A stretch of 64,000 nt of DNA from Streptomyces sp. NBC_00341 (GTDB lineage Bacteria > Actinomycetota > Actinomycetes > Streptomycetales > Streptomycetaceae). Numbering within the stretch: the first letter of the stretch is position 1; the number at the start of each line of letters is the position of its first letter. The notes under the pieces are model-generated. The model had not been told where the DNA came from, did not search any database, and saw only the letters and a list, made by a program, of their open reading frames with translations. The DNA is taken from contig NZ_CP108002.1 of the NCBI RefSeq assembly GCF_041435055.1, forward strand, positions 6,014,001-6,078,000. The letters run 5' to 3'. This document shows, in pieces, positions 35,213 through 40,555 of this stretch. The translations under genes were made by a program, and so were the position numbers.

Positions 35213-36409
35213 TCAGCCCCTGGCGAGCCACAGGTCGGGGCCGAACACCTCGTAGTGGATGTCGGCGGCGGGGACGCCCTTGGCGAGCAGCTGGGTGCGC
35301 ACGGACCGCATGAAGGGCAGCGGGCCGCACAGGTAGGCGTGGGTGTCGGACGGGACGGCCAGGTCCGTCAGGTCGACCAGGCCCGTGCGGTTTCCGGGGT
35401 GGCCGGGGCCGGGATTCTCGTACCAGAAGTGCGCCGAGGCGTCCGGGAGTTCGCCGGTGAGCGTGGCGTGGTCGGTGCGCAGGGCGTGGTCGTCGGGGGA
35501 GCGGTCGCCGTGCACGACGGTGACCGGGGTGCGGTGGCCGTCGTTCGCCAGGTGCTCCAGCATCGAGAGCATCGGGGTGCACCCGATGCCCGCGGAGGCG
35601 AGCAGGAGCGGGGCGTCGGCGGAGTCCAGCACGAGGTCGCCGTACGGGGCCGAGACGCTGAGCAGGTCGCCCGGCCGGACCCGGTCGTGCAGCCGCCGCG
35701 AGACCTCGCCGTCCGGGGCGCCGTCCCCGTGCACCCGCTTGACGGTGATCGAGCGGAGCGGGGAGCCGGGAGCGCGGGACAGGCTGTACTGGCGTATCTG
35801 GCGTGCGCCGTCCGGGAGTTCGCACCGCACCGAGACGTACTGGCCGGGGCGGAAGCCGGGGGCGGGCGCACCGTCGGCGGGGCGGAGCCGGAAGGTGGCG
35901 ACGTCCGCGGTCTCCTCGGTCCGGGAAACCACCTCCCAGTCCCGCCAGACGTCACCGGCGAGCACTCCCTGCTGCGCGTACAGCCGCTCCTCGATCGCTA
36001 TGAGGGCGTTGGCCATCAGCCAGTAGACCTCGTCCCAGGCGGCGGCGACCTCCGGAGTCACGGCGTCACCGAGCACCTCCGTGATGGCGGCGAACAGGTG
36101 GGTGTGGACGACGTCGTACTGGGCGGCCGTGATGCCGAGCGAGGCGTGCTTGTGCGCGATGCGGCCGAGCATGACGTCGGGGCGGGTTTCGGGGTGCTCG
36201 ACCAGCTGCGTCGCGAAGGCGGCTATGGAACCGGCGAGCGCCTGGCGCTGGGCGCCGGAGGCCTGGTTGCCTCGGTTGAAGAGATCGCGCAACAGCTCGG
36301 GGTGGGCGTCGAACAGCTTGCGGTAGAAGAGATCCGCGATGTCTCCGATGGCCGCGCCGACGGCGGGCAGGGTGGCACGGACGGTGGCGGTCGACTGCTC
36401 GGAGAGCAT
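35213..36409 (-). CDS. hmp: Flavohemoglobin, nitric oxide dioxygenase
   Basis: Converts NO to nitrate using O2 and NAD(P)H. 398 residues from ATG 36409, behind GAGGAGTC. The globin domain (about 1-135) has the proximal-His segment RIAHKHASLGI and E-helix FATQLVEHPET. The FAD domain has RQYSLSRAPG (RxYS) and the NAD domain has LLASAGIGCTPMLSML and YLCGPLPFM. A 23-bp NsrR-type site lies 18 bp upstream, and nsrR is the next gene upstream, so NO should induce it. Confidence 0.94.
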   Translation of the reverse strand: MLSEQSTATVRATLPAVGAAIGDIADLFYRKLFDAHPELLRDLFNRGNQASGAQRQALAGSIAAFATQLVEHPETRPDVMLGRIAHKHASLGITAAQYDVVHTHLFAAITEVLGDAVTPEVAAAWDEVYWLMANALIAIEERLYAQQGVLAGDVWRDWEVVSRTEETADVATFRLRPADGAPAPGFRPGQYVSVRCELPDGARQIRQYSLSRAPGSPLRSITVKRVHGDGAPDGEVSRRLHDRVRPGDLLSVSAPYGDLVLDSADAPLLLASAGIGCTPMLSMLEHLANDGHRTPVTVVHGDRSPDDHALRTDHATLTGELPDASAHFWYENPGPGHPGNRTGLVDLTDLAVPSDTHAYLCGPLPFMRSVRTQLLAKGVPAADIHYEVFGPDLWLARG

Positions 36410-36426
36410 CGTGACTCCTCGTATGG

Positions 36427-36449
36427 AATTGGTATTTGATATGCGCATT
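36427..36449. promoter_or_regulatory. NsrR-type operator of hmp
   Basis: A 23-bp 11-1-11 imperfect palindrome, with half-sites AATTGGTATTT and ATATGCGCATT around a central G. Its A+T-rich arms and ends resemble the S. coelicolor NsrR sites at hmpA promoters as I recall them. Confidence 0.7.
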
Positions 36450-36516
36450 TACGGGCGAGCTGGAGGATGGGGGCGGGGCGAGGGGTTTGTGGTCCGGTGC
36501 CCGGGGCGGGTGTGGT

Positions 36517-36966
36517 TCAGTCGCCGGGTGGTGGCCCGCCGCTGATGCCGATCAGGAGCGGTCCCGTGGGGGAGGCGACGAGTTCCGCGACGGTGATCGG
36601 GTCGAGCGTGGCGTAGAAGGCTTCCGCCGCCTCGCGCAGCGCCCCGCGCAGTCGGCACGCCGACCGCAGCGGGCAGGGGGTGGTGCCGTCGCACTCGACG
36701 ACGTCGCCGGGGCCCTCCAGCTCGCGGACGAGCCCGCCGATGGACGCGGTCGGGCCGCCCGGGGCCAGGGTGAGCCCGCCGCCCCGGCCCCGTCGCGCCT
36801 CGACCAGGCCGAGGTGCTGGAGCCTGGCCACGACCTTCGCGGCGTGGGAGTACGGCACCTGCATGGCCGCCGCCACCTCGCGGGTGGTCGGCGGATCCTC
36901 GTTCTCCACGACTGCGAGGCGCATCAGTACGCGCAGTGCCACGTCGGTGAATCTCGTCAGCCGCAT
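36517..36966 (-). CDS. nsrR: Rrf2-family NO-sensing repressor NsrR
   Basis: 149 residues from ATG 36966. The N-terminal winged helix (TREVAAAMQVPYSHAAKVVA) binds DNA. The cluster-binding cysteines are C92, C98 and C104 (C-x5-C-x5-C), with D8 and E84 at the positions that help ligate the [4Fe-4S] cluster in S. coelicolor NsrR. Nitrosylation of the cluster relieves repression. It lies upstream of hmp in the same direction with 107 bp between, and has its own 23-bp operator. Confidence 0.92.
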   Translation of the reverse strand: MRLTRFTDVALRVLMRLAVVENEDPPTTREVAAAMQVPYSHAAKVVARLQHLGLVEARRGRGGGLTLAPGGPTASIGGLVRELEGPGDVVECDGTTPCPLRSACRLRGALREAAEAFYATLDPITVAELVASPTGPLLIGISGGPPPGD

Positions 36967-36982
36967 GACGGTCACGCTAGAT

Positions 36983-37005
36983 AATTGGCATCCCAGATGC
37001 AAGTT
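36983..37005. promoter_or_regulatory. NsrR-type operator of nsrR (autoregulation)
   Basis: A 23-bp 11-1-11 palindrome with arms AATTGGCATCC and AGATGCAAGTT around C. The reverse strand reads AACTTGCATCT..., close to the NsrR sites I recall for S. coelicolor. It starts 17 bp before the nsrR ATG. Confidence 0.75.
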
Positions 37006-37141
37006 AACTGCTCCGCGGGCATCGCGCAGCGTTGTGCCCAGCCCAAAGCCCTATTAGTCACACTCTTTTGTGTAATGGCGCGCCGAGTCACGTGCTGAAA
37101 GGCTTCTTCAGCAGGTCAGCCGATGATGGAGAGGACGTCAG

Positions 37142-38548
37142 ATGTCCGTTGGTGAAGAGGTTCAGAACGCGCAGGTGCCGCCGCAGCAGAGTCTTGGCAC
37201 GGCAGCCGCGCGGAACCTCGCGACGACCACCAAGTCCGCCCCGCAGATGCAGGAGATCACCTCGCGGTGGCTGCTGAAGATGCTTCCGTGGGTCCAGGTG
37301 CAGGGCGGCACATACCGGGTGAACCGCAGGCTGAGCTACTCGGTCGGCGACGGCCGGGTGACCTTCGTACAGACCGGAGACCGGGTGGCGGTCATCCCCG
37401 CCGAGCTCGGTGAACTCCCGGCCCTGCGGGGCTTCGGGGACGAGGAGGCGCTCGCGGAGCTGGCCCGCAGGTGCGAGCAGCGTGACGTTCCCGCCGGACA
37501 GCTCCTGGCCACGGCCGGTGACGCGGCGGACCGGGTCTTCCTGTTGGCGCACGGCAAGGTCGAGAAGATCGGCACCGGCCCCTACGGGGACGAGACGGTG
37601 CTCGGGGTGCACGCCGACGGGGCCTACTTCGGTGACCACTCCCTCGTCGAGGGGGACGCCCTCTGGGAGTACACGGCCCGCGCCGTCACGAACTGCACCG
37701 TACTGACGTTGCAGCGGGCCGATGTGCTCAACCTCGCGGAGCGGTCCGATTCGCTGCGCGAGCATCTCGCCGGACTGCTGGCCATCCCGCAGCAGCGCAC
37801 CAACAACTACGGCGAGGCGGCGATCGACCTGTCCGCGGGGCACGTCGGGGAGGCCCTCGTCCCGCACACGTTCGTCGACTACGACGCCGCGCCCCGCGAG
37901 TACGAACTGAGCGTCGCGCAGACCGTGCTGAAGGTCCACAGCCGGGTCGCCGACCTGTACAACCAGCCGATGAACCAGACCGAGCAGCAGTTGCGGCTCA
38001 CGGTCGAGGCGCTGCGCGAGCGCCAGGAGCACGAGCTGATCAACAACCGCGAGTTCGGCCTGCTCAACAACTGCGACTACGGCCAGCGGCTCCAGCCCCA
38101 CGACGGTGTGCCCGGTCCGGACGACATGGACGAACTGCTCTCGCGCCGCCGCGGATCGAAGCTCTTCCTGGCTCACCCCCGGGCCATCGCCGCCTTCGGC
38201 CGGGAGTGCAGCAAGCGCGGACTGGTCCCGGAGAGCGTGGACGTCGGCGGTCACCGCATCGCGACCTGGCGCGGGGTTCCGATCTTCCCGTCCAACAAGA
38301 TCCCGGTCAGCGACGCCCGCACCACCTCGATCATCTGCATGAGGACCGGTGAGGCCGAGCAGGGCGTCGTCGGACTTCAGCAGACCGGCATCCCCGACGA
38401 GATCGAGCCCAGCCTGTCGGTCCGGTTCATGGGGATCGACGAGCAGGCGATCATCTCCTACCTCGTGACGGCCTACTACTCGGCGGCCGTACTGGTACCG
38501 GACGCCCTCGGTGTCCTGGAGAACGTCGAGGTAAGCCGCTGGCGTTAG
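37142..38548 (+). CDS. Family 2B encapsulin nanocompartment shell protein with cNMP-binding insertion
   Basis: 468 residues behind GGAGAGG. It builds an HK97-fold protein shell. The N-terminal arm and P-domain strand region ([11 protein letters not shown]..., [11 protein letters not shown]) are interrupted at about residues 90-215 by a cyclic-nucleotide-binding-like domain ([32 protein letters not shown]). The rest is typical of the family: [75 protein letters not shown] and [20 protein letters not shown]. No signal peptide. A leader hairpin lies at 37093-37113. The next gene is a polyprenyl synthase, a known cargo type for this family. Confidence 0.9.
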
Positions 38549-38557
38549 TCCGTGTCC

Positions 38558-38594
38558 GCAGCGGGTCCCGGCCGCCACGGGCGGGACCCGCTGC
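38558..38594 (+). terminator. Hairpin after the encapsulin gene
   Basis: GCAGCGGGTCCC (38558-38569) pairs perfectly with 38583-38594. It begins nine bases after the encapsulin stop, within the presumed shell-cargo operon, so it should lower read-through to the cargo gene. Confidence 0.7.
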
Positions 38595-38636
38595 CCGGCA
38601 CGCGCCGCGGTCCTCAGTAGCCACAGCAACCACCCA

Positions 38637-38673
38637 CGTCCCGGCCCGGAGCGACAGCGTCCGGGCCGGGACG
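38637..38673 (+). terminator. Second hairpin between encapsulin and cargo genes
   Basis: CGTCCCGGCCCGGA (38637-38650) pairs perfectly with 38660-38673, a 14-bp stem with a 9-base loop. It ends 26 bases before the cargo start codon. Confidence 0.7.
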
Positions 38674-38699
38674 GCAACGACCGGGGTGACCGATTGACC

Positions 38700-39743
38700 A
38701 TGACCCGTACCGACGCCGCCACCGAGGGCAACGAGGCCGCGGCTCTTCTGGAGTACACCCGATCCCTCGTCGACCCCCACCTGCGGGCGGCGGTCGCCTC
38801 GCTGCCCGGATCCATCCGGCGCGTCGCCATGTACCACTTCGGCTGGCAGCACGCCGACGGCAGCCCGGCCGGAGGCGGTGCGGGCAAGGCGATCAGACCG
38901 GCGCTCGTGCTGGCCGCCACCCGGGCGCTCGGAGGTGACCCCAGGGACGCCGTGCGGGCGGCCGTCGCCGTGGAGCTGGCGCACAATTTCACCCTGCTCC
39001 ACGACGACGTCATCGACGAGGACCGGACCCGCCGGCATCGCGCCACCGCCTGGACGGTGTTCGGCATCCCGGACGCCGTCATCGCCGGCGACGCGATGCT
39101 GGCCCTCGCCCAGCGGCTGCTGGCCGAGGACGCCCGAGCGGTCTCGCCACGCGCCTCGGCCCGGCTCTCGACCTGCGTCATCGAACTGTGCGCCGGCCAG
39201 CAGGCCGACTGCGCCTTCGAGGAACGGGGCCCGGAGGAGGTCACGCTGGACGAGTGCCTCACCATGGCCACGGCCAAAACGGGCGCTCTGCTCGGCTGCG
39301 CCTGCGCGGTGGGCGCGCTCTACGCGGGCGCCGACGAGCGCGCCGTCGGAGCGATGGACGGCTTCGGCCGGGAGGCCGGGCTCGCCTTCCAGCTCATCGA
39401 CGACCTCATCGGCATCTGGGGCGACCCGGCCCAGACGGGGAAGCCCGTCGGGGCCGATCTCACCGCCCACAAGAAGTCGCTGCCCGTGGTCGCCGCGCTC
39501 ACCTCCGGTACCCCGGCGGCCGCTGAGCTGGCCGCCCTCTACCGCGGTCCGATGAACACGGTCGGCGAGGTGAGCCGTGCCTCCGACGCCGTCGACCGGG
39601 CCGGCGGGCGCGACTGGGCGCAGATCTGCGCCGCGGACCGGATGGCACGGGCCGTGCACCACCTGTCCCGCGCGGTGCCCGACCTGTCCGCGGCGGGCGA
39701 CCTCCTCGCCCTGGCGGAGTTCGTCACGCGCCGGACCCACTGA
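38700..39743 (+). CDS. Polyprenyl diphosphate synthase, probable encapsulin cargo
   Basis: Condenses isoprenyl diphosphates into longer chains. 347 residues from ATG 38700; TTG 38694 is two codons upstream. The isoprenyl-synthase motifs are all there: GAGKAIRPALVLAATRA (substrate Lys/Arg), the first Asp-rich motif LLHDDVIDEDRTRRH and the second FQLIDDLIGIWGD. Phe sits five residues before the first Asp-rich motif, a position where bulky residues limit product length to about C15-C20 in related enzymes. Polyprenyl transferases next to family 2B shells are described as encapsulated cargo. The N-terminal extension before the fold is only about 15 residues, so no long targeting domain is visible. 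Confidence 0.85.
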   Translation: MTRTDAATEGNEAAALLEYTRSLVDPHLRAAVASLPGSIRRVAMYHFGWQHADGSPAGGGAGKAIRPALVLAATRALGGDPRDAVRAAVAVELAHNFTLLHDDVIDEDRTRRHRATAWTVFGIPDAVIAGDAMLALAQRLLAEDARAVSPRASARLSTCVIELCAGQQADCAFEERGPEEVTLDECLTMATAKTGALLGCACAVGALYAGADERAVGAMDGFGREAGLAFQLIDDLIGIWGDPAQTGKPVGADLTAHKKSLPVVAALTSGTPAAAELAALYRGPMNTVGEVSRASDAVDRAGGRDWAQICAADRMARAVHHLSRAVPDLSAAGDLLALAEFVTRRTH

Positions 39744-39886
39744 GCGAAGCAGTGGGGGAGCCAAGGAGCCGAGGAGTGAAGGAGCGTGACGCGACAGGGC
39801 GATGATCGGCCGAGGTCACGGGCCTCGCGCGGGGAAGTGGAGGGCGGCAGGGGGAGTGTCCGAGGCACGGGCTACAGTCCCTGCCC

Positions 39887-40555
39887 ATGACAGATGAGTC
39901 GTGGGCAGGGTGGTACCGGGACCGGCAGGGATCCGATGCCGTCATCCTCACCACCGACGGACAGCAACTCCACCTCCGTATCCGGGGAGTCGACTTCGAG
40001 GGCGACAGCTTCGACGGCCTCCGCCCCGCGGCGGGCACGCCGGACCAGGGCGAGATGTTCGCCCTGGCGGACGGCGTGCTCAACGACTGCGTCCTGGAAT
40101 GGGACCTGCCGTTCCCGGTCGTCGCGGACGGGGTGCCCGAACAGGCGCGGCTCAGCTGCCTGCTGTCGCTGCGCCGGCCGGATCCGTACCTCTACCTGGA
40201 GCTGCAGTTCGGCGGAGCGGGCTTCCGGTCCCACCGGGCCGAGAGCGACTTCGGCTCCGCGCTCGCCACCATCCAGCGGGTTCTTCCGCCCGGAGTCCGG
40301 CTCCAGACGTGCATCGCCTGTGCCTTCTCGGACTACTTCCCGGCGCCCGGCCGAGGTCTCTCCGGCGGCCTCGCCTGCTTCCGGGGGGCCAAAGAGGCCT
40401 ACCGGGGGGCGGACGGGGAGGGCGATGTCCTCGATCTCTGGGACCGGCGCAGCGGATTCGTCCAGGAGACCTACAGCTGCCCGGAGTTCGAGCCCAGGCC
40501 GACGGCCGGCGCGGGTACCGGACACCGCGGAGCGTTCCCCCTCGAACTGGCCTGA
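39887..40555 (+). CDS. Uncharacterised DUF6304-like protein
   Basis: 222 residues from ATG 39887. It resembles a Streptomyces family annotated DUF6304. There is no signal peptide or membrane helix. The first 130 residues look like beta strands (QQLHLRIRGVDFEGDSFDGL; LYLELQFGGAGFRSHR). The second part has CIACAFSDYFPAPGRGLSGG, LACFRGAKEAYRG and LDLWDRRSGFVQETYSCPEF, with several conserved aromatic and Cys residues. Function unknown. A hairpin follows the stop. Confidence 0.65.
   Translation: MTDESWAGWYRDRQGSDAVILTTDGQQLHLRIRGVDFEGDSFDGLRPAAGTPDQGEMFALADGVLNDCVLEWDLPFPVVADGVPEQARLSCLLSLRRPDPYLYLELQFGGAGFRSHRAESDFGSALATIQRVLPPGVRLQTCIACAFSDYFPAPGRGLSGGLACFRGAKEAYRGADGEGDVLDLWDRRSGFVQETYSCPEFEPRPTAGAGTGHRGAFPLELA

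What the first reader, a model, noticed from the sequence alone, without database searches (positions are those of the whole stretch)
37142..39743. Encapsulin nanocompartment operon: family 2B shell with cNMP-binding insertion and a polyprenyl synthase
The shell protein has the HK97-like segments and a cyclic-nucleotide-binding-like insertion (FGDHSL...YTARA) at about residues 90-215. The neighbour has complete FARM and SARM Asp-rich motifs. Family 2B shells with polyprenyl transferase cargo are described in the literature, but the encapsulated product, the ligand of the insertion and why prenyl synthesis should be caged are, to my knowledge, open. This is the best candidate here for an exciting system.
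Basis: partly seen in the sequence, partly recalled or inferred. Interest (0 to 1): 0.72.

Follow-up and report, generated by a model that had tools for sequence, protein, structure and literature searches.

The report
Encapsulin shell with prenyl synthase partner
A Streptomyces-type bacterium carries a gene for a virus-like protein shell beside a gene for an enzyme that builds short isoprenoid chains; the pair is an already catalogued kind, but how, or whether, this enzyme gets into the shell is not settled.

Summary
Window 37142-38548 encodes a family 2B encapsulin shell (NF041163, 766 bits, cut-off 400); 38694/38700-39743 encodes its partner polyprenyl transferase, PT (NF041169, 487 bits, cut-off 450). 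The kind is known: about 900 PT operons are published (PMC8346489).

The second Asp-rich motif is DDxxG, not complete, in 75 of 75 intact PTs read. The cNMP-like domain lacks the canonical phosphate-site Arg in 80 of 81 shells and has an invariant Trp there; a relative's domain reportedly binds no cyclic nucleotide.

Results from these calls: (1) of 114 Streptomyces genomes with this PT, 112 have it beside a shell gene; (2) this PT has only about 10 disordered N-terminal residues and no cyclase-type loading motif, so packaging is unproven; (3) a 22-bp element was found 26 times in 61 genomes, 25 of them 110-142 bp before this shell's HMM start; (4) 50 of 75 loci have a hairpin between shell and PT.

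In passing: the published cyclase loading motif GLGTSAAR resembles the shell's own N-arm SLGT[AS]AAR.

The parts
37142..38548 (+). family 2B encapsulin shell protein, 468 aa; N-arm with [10 protein letters not shown] (residues 17-26), HK97-fold parts before and after the insertion
   Evidence: NF041163 766 bits; PF19307 454 bits; PDB 9bhu 663 bits, 9bje 618, 9bix 601
37418..37786 (+). cNMP-binding-like insertion (about residues 93-215) in the E-loop region; PBC-like stretch residues 163-181 with G164, D165, W175
   Evidence: PF00027 61.5 bits; PDB alignments; column counts over 81 shells; modelled with confidence although the HK97 part was not
38700..39743 (+). short-chain trans-prenyl diphosphate synthase (PT), 347 aa, FARM DDVID, SARM DDLIG; TTG at 38694 is an alternative start
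   Evidence: NF041169 487 bits, IdsB model 368 bits under its cut-off 475; AlphaFold pLDDT 87, best fold match 3nf2, TM 0.90, 43% identity
37055..37078 (+). conserved element TAGTCACACTCTTTTGTGTAATGG, 62-64 bp before the shell ATG; probably promoter or operator
   Evidence: 1 match in the window, 0 expected; aligned in 81 of 81 loci; strict 22-bp form in 58 of 81 loci, 0 elsewhere in 1.29 Mb; 26 matches in 25 of 61 genomes, 25 of them 110-142 bp before the shell HMM start
38558..38594 (+). hairpin 10 nt after the shell stop, 17-nt arms, 94% complementary
   Evidence: long-stem hairpin between shell and PT in 50 of 75 loci
38637..38673 (+). second hairpin, 14-nt arms, 100% complementary, 27 nt before the PT ATG
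36517..36966 (-). divergent Rrf2-family (NsrR-like) regulator; its start at 36966 is inferred, ORF to 37002
   Evidence: PF02082 104 bits; NsrR model 86.8 bits, under its cut-off 182; neighbour in 23 of 80 loci, 3-4 kb away in 4 more
36984..37005 (.). imperfect palindrome AATTGGCAT-N-ATGCAAGTT, NsrR-type (label recalled)
   Evidence: sequence; TTGCAT-N-ATGCAA with up to 2 mismatches within 200 bp of the shell start in 24 of 81 loci

Best explanation
This is a single-component family 2B encapsulin locus of the EshB type. Shown here: one shell gene with an Enc2-like diagnostic motif, followed by a PT that is almost inseparable from it in Streptomyces. Inferred: about 60 shell subunits self-assemble, with the cNMP-like domains outside above the two-fold pores (as solved for relatives). 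The PT is a short-chain (C15-C20) trans-prenyl diphosphate synthase that is carried inside or on the shell, with IPP and the allylic substrate entering through the pores and the domain setting pore access without binding cAMP or cGMP. The shell gene has its own conserved promoter element, and a hairpin behind its stop probably lowers read-through into the PT so that much more shell than enzyme is made. How the PT is loaded is not explained by the known cyclase motif or by an N-terminal extension.
For: Family models over cut-off for both proteins. Closest solved chains are family 2B shells. Shell motif 1 is RRRG in 81 of 81, like the S. lydicus Enc2 that assembles alone (PMC12407261, section 11 read). 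PT follows the shell in 75 of 80 fetched loci; 3 of the other 5 end 111-235 nt after the shell. PT-anchored: 112 of 114 PTs over cut-off in 150 Streptomyces genomes lie within 1 kb of a shell gene. PT fold confident. Element and hairpins.
Against: No shell-bound PT has been shown here or in the papers seen. PT lacks an evident loading domain. Two of 80 loci (L040, L056) have the shell and no PT behind it. The gap of 145 bp with hairpins (51-690 bp between HMM ends in 98 genomes) allows two transcripts. NF041169 was built on shell-linked PTs, so its cut-off partly selects for linkage. Chain length rests on family and FARM context, not assay. The AlphaFold model of the HK97 part failed (pLDDT 48), so the shell fold rests on homology.
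Confidence: 0.62

Rival explanations
1. The PT is a co-regulated partner that works outside or on the surface of the shell, and the lumen is meant for a terpene cyclase encoded elsewhere, such as the genome's solitary geosmin synthase, which carries a shell-N-arm-like tail.
For: PT has no LGT motif (1 of 76 locus PTs, 0 of 120 homologues in the first 110 residues) and only about 10 disordered N-terminal residues. The geosmin synthase at C1:296932-299142, 5.75 Mb away, ends ...SGPTGLGTSSARV.... The published cyclase motif is GPTGLGTSAAR (PMC8346489, passages); the shell N-arm is LGT[AS]AAR in 79 of 81.
Against: Co-occurrence does not favour it: a C-terminal geosmin-synthase tail aligns in 54 of 112 genomes with the PT-shell and in 23 of 31 without (p = 0.014, the opposite direction; 143 of 150 genomes were in the capped list). 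The strict pattern GLGT..R was met in 8 of 30 fetched synthase tails, looser variants by eye in 30 of 30. One synthase beside a shell gene (L173) lacks the motif.
Confidence: 0.17
2. The cNMP-like domain senses cAMP or cGMP and gates the shell.
For: PF00027 61.5 bits over its cut-off 27.5; G164 invariant, acidic residue at 165 in 81 of 81.
Against: Arg at neither position 174 nor 175 in 80 of 81 shells; W175 in 81 of 81. HMMER places the arginine column at 174 or 175 depending on the template, so both were checked. PMC12407261 (section 11 read) reports that a family 2B domain does not bind cyclic nucleotides.
Confidence: 0.05
3. The shell is an NO-responsive compartment under the NsrR-like regulator that is divergently transcribed next to it.
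For: Rrf2/NsrR-like and flavohaemoprotein genes are the divergent neighbours; palindrome 50 bp from the shell element.
Against: Adjacent in only 23 of 80 loci and 3-4 kb away in 4 more; the palindrome is found in 24 of 81, whereas the shell element is in all 81 alignments with or without it.
Confidence: 0.06
4. The shell is mainly a developmental or regulatory particle (EshA/EshB line of work: sporogenic hyphae, ppGpp, antibiotic production) and the PT linkage is secondary.
For: eshB (SCO5249) and eshA (SCO7699) are paralogues and both promoters rise during development (PMC3878966, passages). SCO5249 is raised in the second mycelium (PMC3610822, table passage). EshA is tied to ppGpp in a review (PMC6627660, passages).
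Against: The 112 of 114 linkage argues for a joint function. That SCO5249 is the PT-linked shell is recalled and was not tested here.
Confidence: 0.1

Closest known systems
Family 2B encapsulin operons with polyprenyl transferase (Andreas and Giessen 2021, PMC8346489, passages seen; about 900 operons, 888 in Actinobacteria)
   Same: one family 2B shell gene with a PT gene behind it, PT of family NF041169
   Different: published PTs are said to have a 50-100 residue disordered N-terminal domain; this PT has about 10 disordered residues, though some orthologues have longer tails
EshA / 2-methylisoborneol shell (PDB 9bhu; second shell of this genome, L092)
   Same: family 2B shell, 64% identical to the window's shell, same N-arm and insertion
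   Different: linked to a methyltransferase and a 2-MIB synthase with the motif GPTGLGTASLR, not to a PT
S. lydicus two-component shell Enc1/Enc2 (PDB 9bje, 9bix; PMC12407261)
   Same: family 2B shells; motif 1 here is Enc2-like RRRG
   Different: only one shell gene at this locus; the other shell gene of the genome is 1.3 Mb away
EshB, SCO5249 of S. coelicolor (PMC3878966)
   Same: second eshA-like paralogue of a Streptomyces; developmentally induced
   Different: orthology to the window's shell is inferred from recall, not tested

Membership tests
Family 2B encapsulin shell | HK97-fold family 2 shell sequence | tested here: met
   PF19307 454 bits; NF041163 766 bits, cut-off 400; 9bhu 663 bits
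Family 2B encapsulin shell | internal cNMP-binding-like domain | tested here: met
   PF00027 at residues 114-201
Family 2B encapsulin shell | assembly into a closed icosahedral shell | not testable with these tools
   AlphaFold of the HK97 part failed; inferred from solved relatives
Family 2 encapsulin PT cargo (NF041169) | PT over the curated cut-off beside a family 2 shell gene | tested here: met
   487 bits, cut-off 450; 145 bp behind the shell
Family 2 encapsulin PT cargo (NF041169) | disordered N-terminal domain of 50-100 residues (as published) | tested here: not met
   pLDDT under 50 only at residues 1-9 and 104-112, first helix from residue 12; the non-shell paralogue L093 has the longer tail
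Family 2 encapsulin PT cargo (NF041169) | physical loading into the shell | not testable with these tools
   needs co-purification or cryo-EM
Terpene-cyclase-type loading motif (GPTGLGT / GPTGLGTSAAR) | motif in the putative cargo | tested here: not met
   LGT in the first 110 residues of 1 of 76 locus PTs and 0 of 120 homologues
Canonical cNMP-binding domain | phosphate-binding cassette with Gly, acidic residue and Arg | tested here: not met
   Gly 81 of 81, acidic 81 of 81, but Arg at 174 in 1 of 81 and at 175 in 0 of 81; alignment to 3co2 and 4muv
trans-Prenyl diphosphate synthase | FARM DDxxD | tested here: met
   DDVID; FARM pattern matched in 75 of 76 PTs
trans-Prenyl diphosphate synthase | SARM DDxxD | tested here: not met
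   DDxxG in 75 of 75 intact PTs, also in both paralogues of this genome and in 3nf2, so a lineage variant rather than a loss
Two-component family 2B system | two shell genes within 10 kb | tested here: not met
   two shell genes over cut-off in the genome, 1.3 Mb apart

The most novel reading that the evidence does not exclude
Family 2B shells load cargo by mimicry of their own N-arm: the conserved cyclase motif (G)LGTSAAR copies the shell segment SLGT[AS]AARNL, so that cargo replaces an N-arm at its docking groove. The shell in this window keeps that groove but its neighbour PT lacks the motif; the shell would then be a general isoprenoid compartment that can take a cyclase from elsewhere in the genome, for example geosmin synthase, while the PT feeds it from inside by another route or from the surface.
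Probability: 0.15. Interest if true: 0.68.

Novelty: new member of a known kind. Interest (0 to 1): 0.38.

Why it matters
PT-linked family 2B shells are among the commonest encapsulins of Streptomyces (114 of 150 genomes sampled have the PT over cut-off), yet product, loading route and domain ligand are open in the papers seen. The results here make three points directly testable: whether a PT with almost no N-terminal tail is loaded at all; which regulator reads a nearly private 22-bp element in front of the shell gene; and whether cargo loading works by copying the shell's N-arm.

Tried and rejected
Cyclic-nucleotide gating: rejected as unlikely (and PMC12407261). My first wording, 'Trp sits on the Arg position', was softened: HMMER puts the Arg column at 174 or 175 depending on the template, and the in-genome 2-MIB shell has Arg-Trp at the equivalent pair.

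NO regulation through the NsrR-like gene: neighbour in a minority of loci, element independent of it.

Second shell component at the locus: none. Further operon members: the stretch between PT and DUF6304 varies (an acetyltransferase-like ORF in L037, TetR-like and reductase-like ORFs in L065, named by eye), so only shell and PT are constant.

Element as a palindromic operator: RTYACAC-N6-GTGTRAY fits the window, but the left half changes to CCCAC in many loci, so a simple palindrome is not supported. A sigma-70 consensus scan found no promoter and no U-tract terminator in 36400-40000.

Geosmin synthase as trans cargo: co-occurrence ran the other way. That test used only the C-terminal tail; several tail-less synthases keep a GTSAA-type motif between their two domains (5 examined: 4 GTSAA, 1 GTSAV), so it is weak either way. 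The degenerate DNA pattern for LGT[AS][AS]xR is common by chance (24 matches in the genome against 54 for the reversed control), so the motif alone proves nothing.

Rfam RF02735 (Sernc350, antisense) matches the minus strand of the shell gene; most simply this reflects homology of the coding sequence, since Sernc350 was defined against the cNMP-domain gene SACE_3976 (PMC3827479, passages).

AlphaFold of the whole shell failed and was not used for fold claims. No PADLOC match for shell, PT or DUF6304.

Full report
What is there. The window is C1:6014001-6078000 of a 9.06-Mb genome of a Streptomyces-type organism. At 37142-38548 (+) lies a 468-aa shell gene. It meets the curated models for a family 2B encapsulin shell (NF041163, 766 bits, cut-off 400) and for the HK97-like and cNMP parts (PF19307, PF00027). 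Its best solved relatives are family 2B shells: 9bhu 663 bits, 9bje 618, 9bix 601. The next gene, 38694/38700-39743 (+), is a polyprenyl transferase (PT) over the cut-off of the family 2 encapsulin cargo model NF041169 (487 bits, cut-off 450). In the protein search most of the named close homologues listed already bear that name.

Details of the observation. FARM is DDVID. SARM is DDLIG; DDxxG holds in 75 of 76 PTs read, the 76th (L090) being truncated. The same variant is in both other related synthases of the genome and in 3nf2, so it is a lineage trait. An AlphaFold model (20-row alignment; pLDDT 87, pTM 0.88) matches 3nf2 with TM 0.90 and 43% identity. Phe at the fifth position before FARM (HNFTLLHDD) fits a short-chain product (C15-C20) by family knowledge that I recall; this was not tested. 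One paralogue, 44% identical, sits beside genes that look by eye like a hopanoid cluster.

Linkage. PT lies directly behind the shell in 75 of 80. Three of the other five end 111-235 nt after the shell; two (L040, L056) lack the PT with 8000 and 1656 nt available. The converse: in 150 Streptomyces genomes, 148 have a family 2B shell over cut-off and 114 a PT over cut-off. Of these 114 PTs, 98 lay within 1 kb of a shell in the capped listing and 14 more in a full listing of the remaining genomes. The last two (G074, G109) lie on contigs without a listed shell; that of G109 starts 196 bases from its contig end. In the order, 215 of 293 genomes have the PT at E <= 1e-136, 3 of them outside the genus. 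Caution: the PT model was built on shell-linked proteins.

Is the PT cargo? The 2021 survey (PMC8346489, passages read) says PT cargos carry a disordered N-terminal domain of 50-100 residues without a conserved motif. Here only residues 1-9 have pLDDT under 50 at the N-terminus and the first helix starts at residue 12. Of 195 PTs counted (75 or 76 locus PTs with starts chosen by me, plus 120 homologues), 145 have fewer than 20 residues before the first-helix motif; the others have up to 70-79 residues and one over 100. The paralogue in the hopanoid-like cluster has a longer tail than the shell-linked PT. An LGT motif of the cyclase type is in the first 110 residues of 1 of 76 locus PTs and of 0 of 120 homologues. 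So loading, if it happens, does not use the known motif or a conserved extension. No experimental PT loading appeared in the papers seen; the searches were (open-licence papers only). I recall a 2024 paper on the 2-MIB shell, which is not in the library and was not seen.

The cNMP-like domain. Over 81 shells the insertion is the most variable part: mean column entropy 0.92 bits against 0.28 for the HK97 part after it. G164 is invariant, residue 165 is D in 65 and E in 16, residue 174 is Arg in 1 of 81, and residue 175 is Trp in 81 of 81. The PBC arginine of solved domains aligns to 174 or 175 depending on the template. The 2-MIB shell of this genome has Arg-Trp there, so the pair is not identical across family 2B. 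PMC12407261 (section 11 read) reports that a family 2B domain binds no cyclic nucleotide.

Shell type. Motif 1, which separates S. lydicus Enc1 (TVWK) from Enc2 (RRRK), is RRRG in 81 of 81. Enc2 alone assembles (PMC12407261, section 11). There is one shell gene here, and the only other one over cut-off in the genome is 1.3 Mb away, in a 2-MIB operon.

Regulation. A stretch 62 bp before the shell ATG, window 37055-37078, aligns in 81 of 81 loci (best 25-mer within 400 bp, 0-8 mismatches; eight positions identical in all). Its strict 22-bp form is upstream of the shell in 58 of 81 loci and nowhere else in 1.29 Mb of fetched DNA. In 61 whole genomes it occurs 26 times, in 25 genomes, with 0 for the reversed control. 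Of these, 25 lie 110-142 bp before the HMM start of a shell and the 26th 347 bp before one. None is in the 15 of the 61 genomes without the PT, and 25 of the other 46 have it. It may be a promoter or an operator; it is not a sigma-70 consensus.

Behind the shell stop the window has two hairpins (17-nt arms 94%, 14-nt arms 100%). A perfect stem of 9 bp or more lies between shell and PT in 50 of 75 loci, against 5 of 75 upstream, 0 of 75 inside the shell gene and 80 of 1500 shuffles, and 13 of 73 behind the PT. In 39 of the 50 the longest stem starts 4-23 nt after the stop. Sequences differ between loci, so the structure rather than the letters is kept. L077 (gap 871 bp) and loci without PT were left out. 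No U-tract follows in the window. Partial termination that favours shell over enzyme is my inference.

Literature on this branch. eshA (SCO7699) belongs with 2-MIB genes (PMC6428758 and PMC5839063, passages). eshB (SCO5249) is its paralogue and is induced in development (PMC3878966, passages; PMC3610822, table passage); it is a possible AtrA target (PMC13170358, passage). That SCO5249 is the PT-linked shell is recalled, not tested.

N-arm mimicry. The shell N-arm reads LGT[AS]AAR in 79 of 81, and exactly LGTSAAR in 11. The published cyclase motif is GPTGLGTSAAR (PMC8346489, passages). In this genome the 2-MIB synthase has GPTGLGTASLR, and the solitary geosmin synthase, 5.75 Mb from the window's shell, ends in GPTGLGTSSARV. 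Of 30 synthase tails fetched, 8 meet the strict pattern GLGT..R and 30 show a looser variant by eye (the list was ranked by similarity to a tail-bearing query). Against: one shell-adjacent synthase lacks it (L173), and tails are not commoner in genomes with the PT-shell (54 of 112 against 23 of 31). A search for the motif string in the paper library gave only the 2021 survey, and 'mimic' occurs in neither of the two main papers. This is a lead, not a result.

Verdict. A real, well-conserved member of a catalogued kind. The specific additions are the tail-less PT, the arginine-less domain, the nearly private promoter-like element and the hairpin behind the shell gene.

Noticed in passing
shell residues 17-26 (window about 37190-37219); L092 2-MIB synthase; L127:160-2373: The shell N-arm SLGT[AS]AARNL resembles the published cyclase loading motif GPTGLGTSAAR; the solitary geosmin synthase carries it at its C-terminus far from any shell gene.
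   Followed up: partly
35213-36448 (-) and 36517-36966 (-): Flavohaemoprotein-like gene and NsrR-like Rrf2 regulator, divergent from the shell gene; adjacent in 23 of 80 related loci and 3-4 kb away in 4 more.
   Followed up: partly
37175-37680 (-): Rfam RF02735 (Sernc350, antisense RNA of Saccharopolyspora) matches the antisense strand of the shell gene with 87 bits; probably coding homology, but antisense transcription could be checked.
   Followed up: partly
39887-40555 (+): DUF6304 protein gene downstream of the PT, kept in most related loci at varying distance.
   Followed up: no
L092 5305-9137: A complete-looking 2-MIB set (shell, 2-MIB synthase, methyltransferase-like ORF) in the same genome.
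   Followed up: partly
G000:C1:87780-88808 and 148724-149752: Two prenyl synthase hits with identical scores on opposite strands near a chromosome end, suggesting an inverted duplication.
   Followed up: no
L040, L056: Shell genes of this type without a PT behind them.
   Followed up: partly
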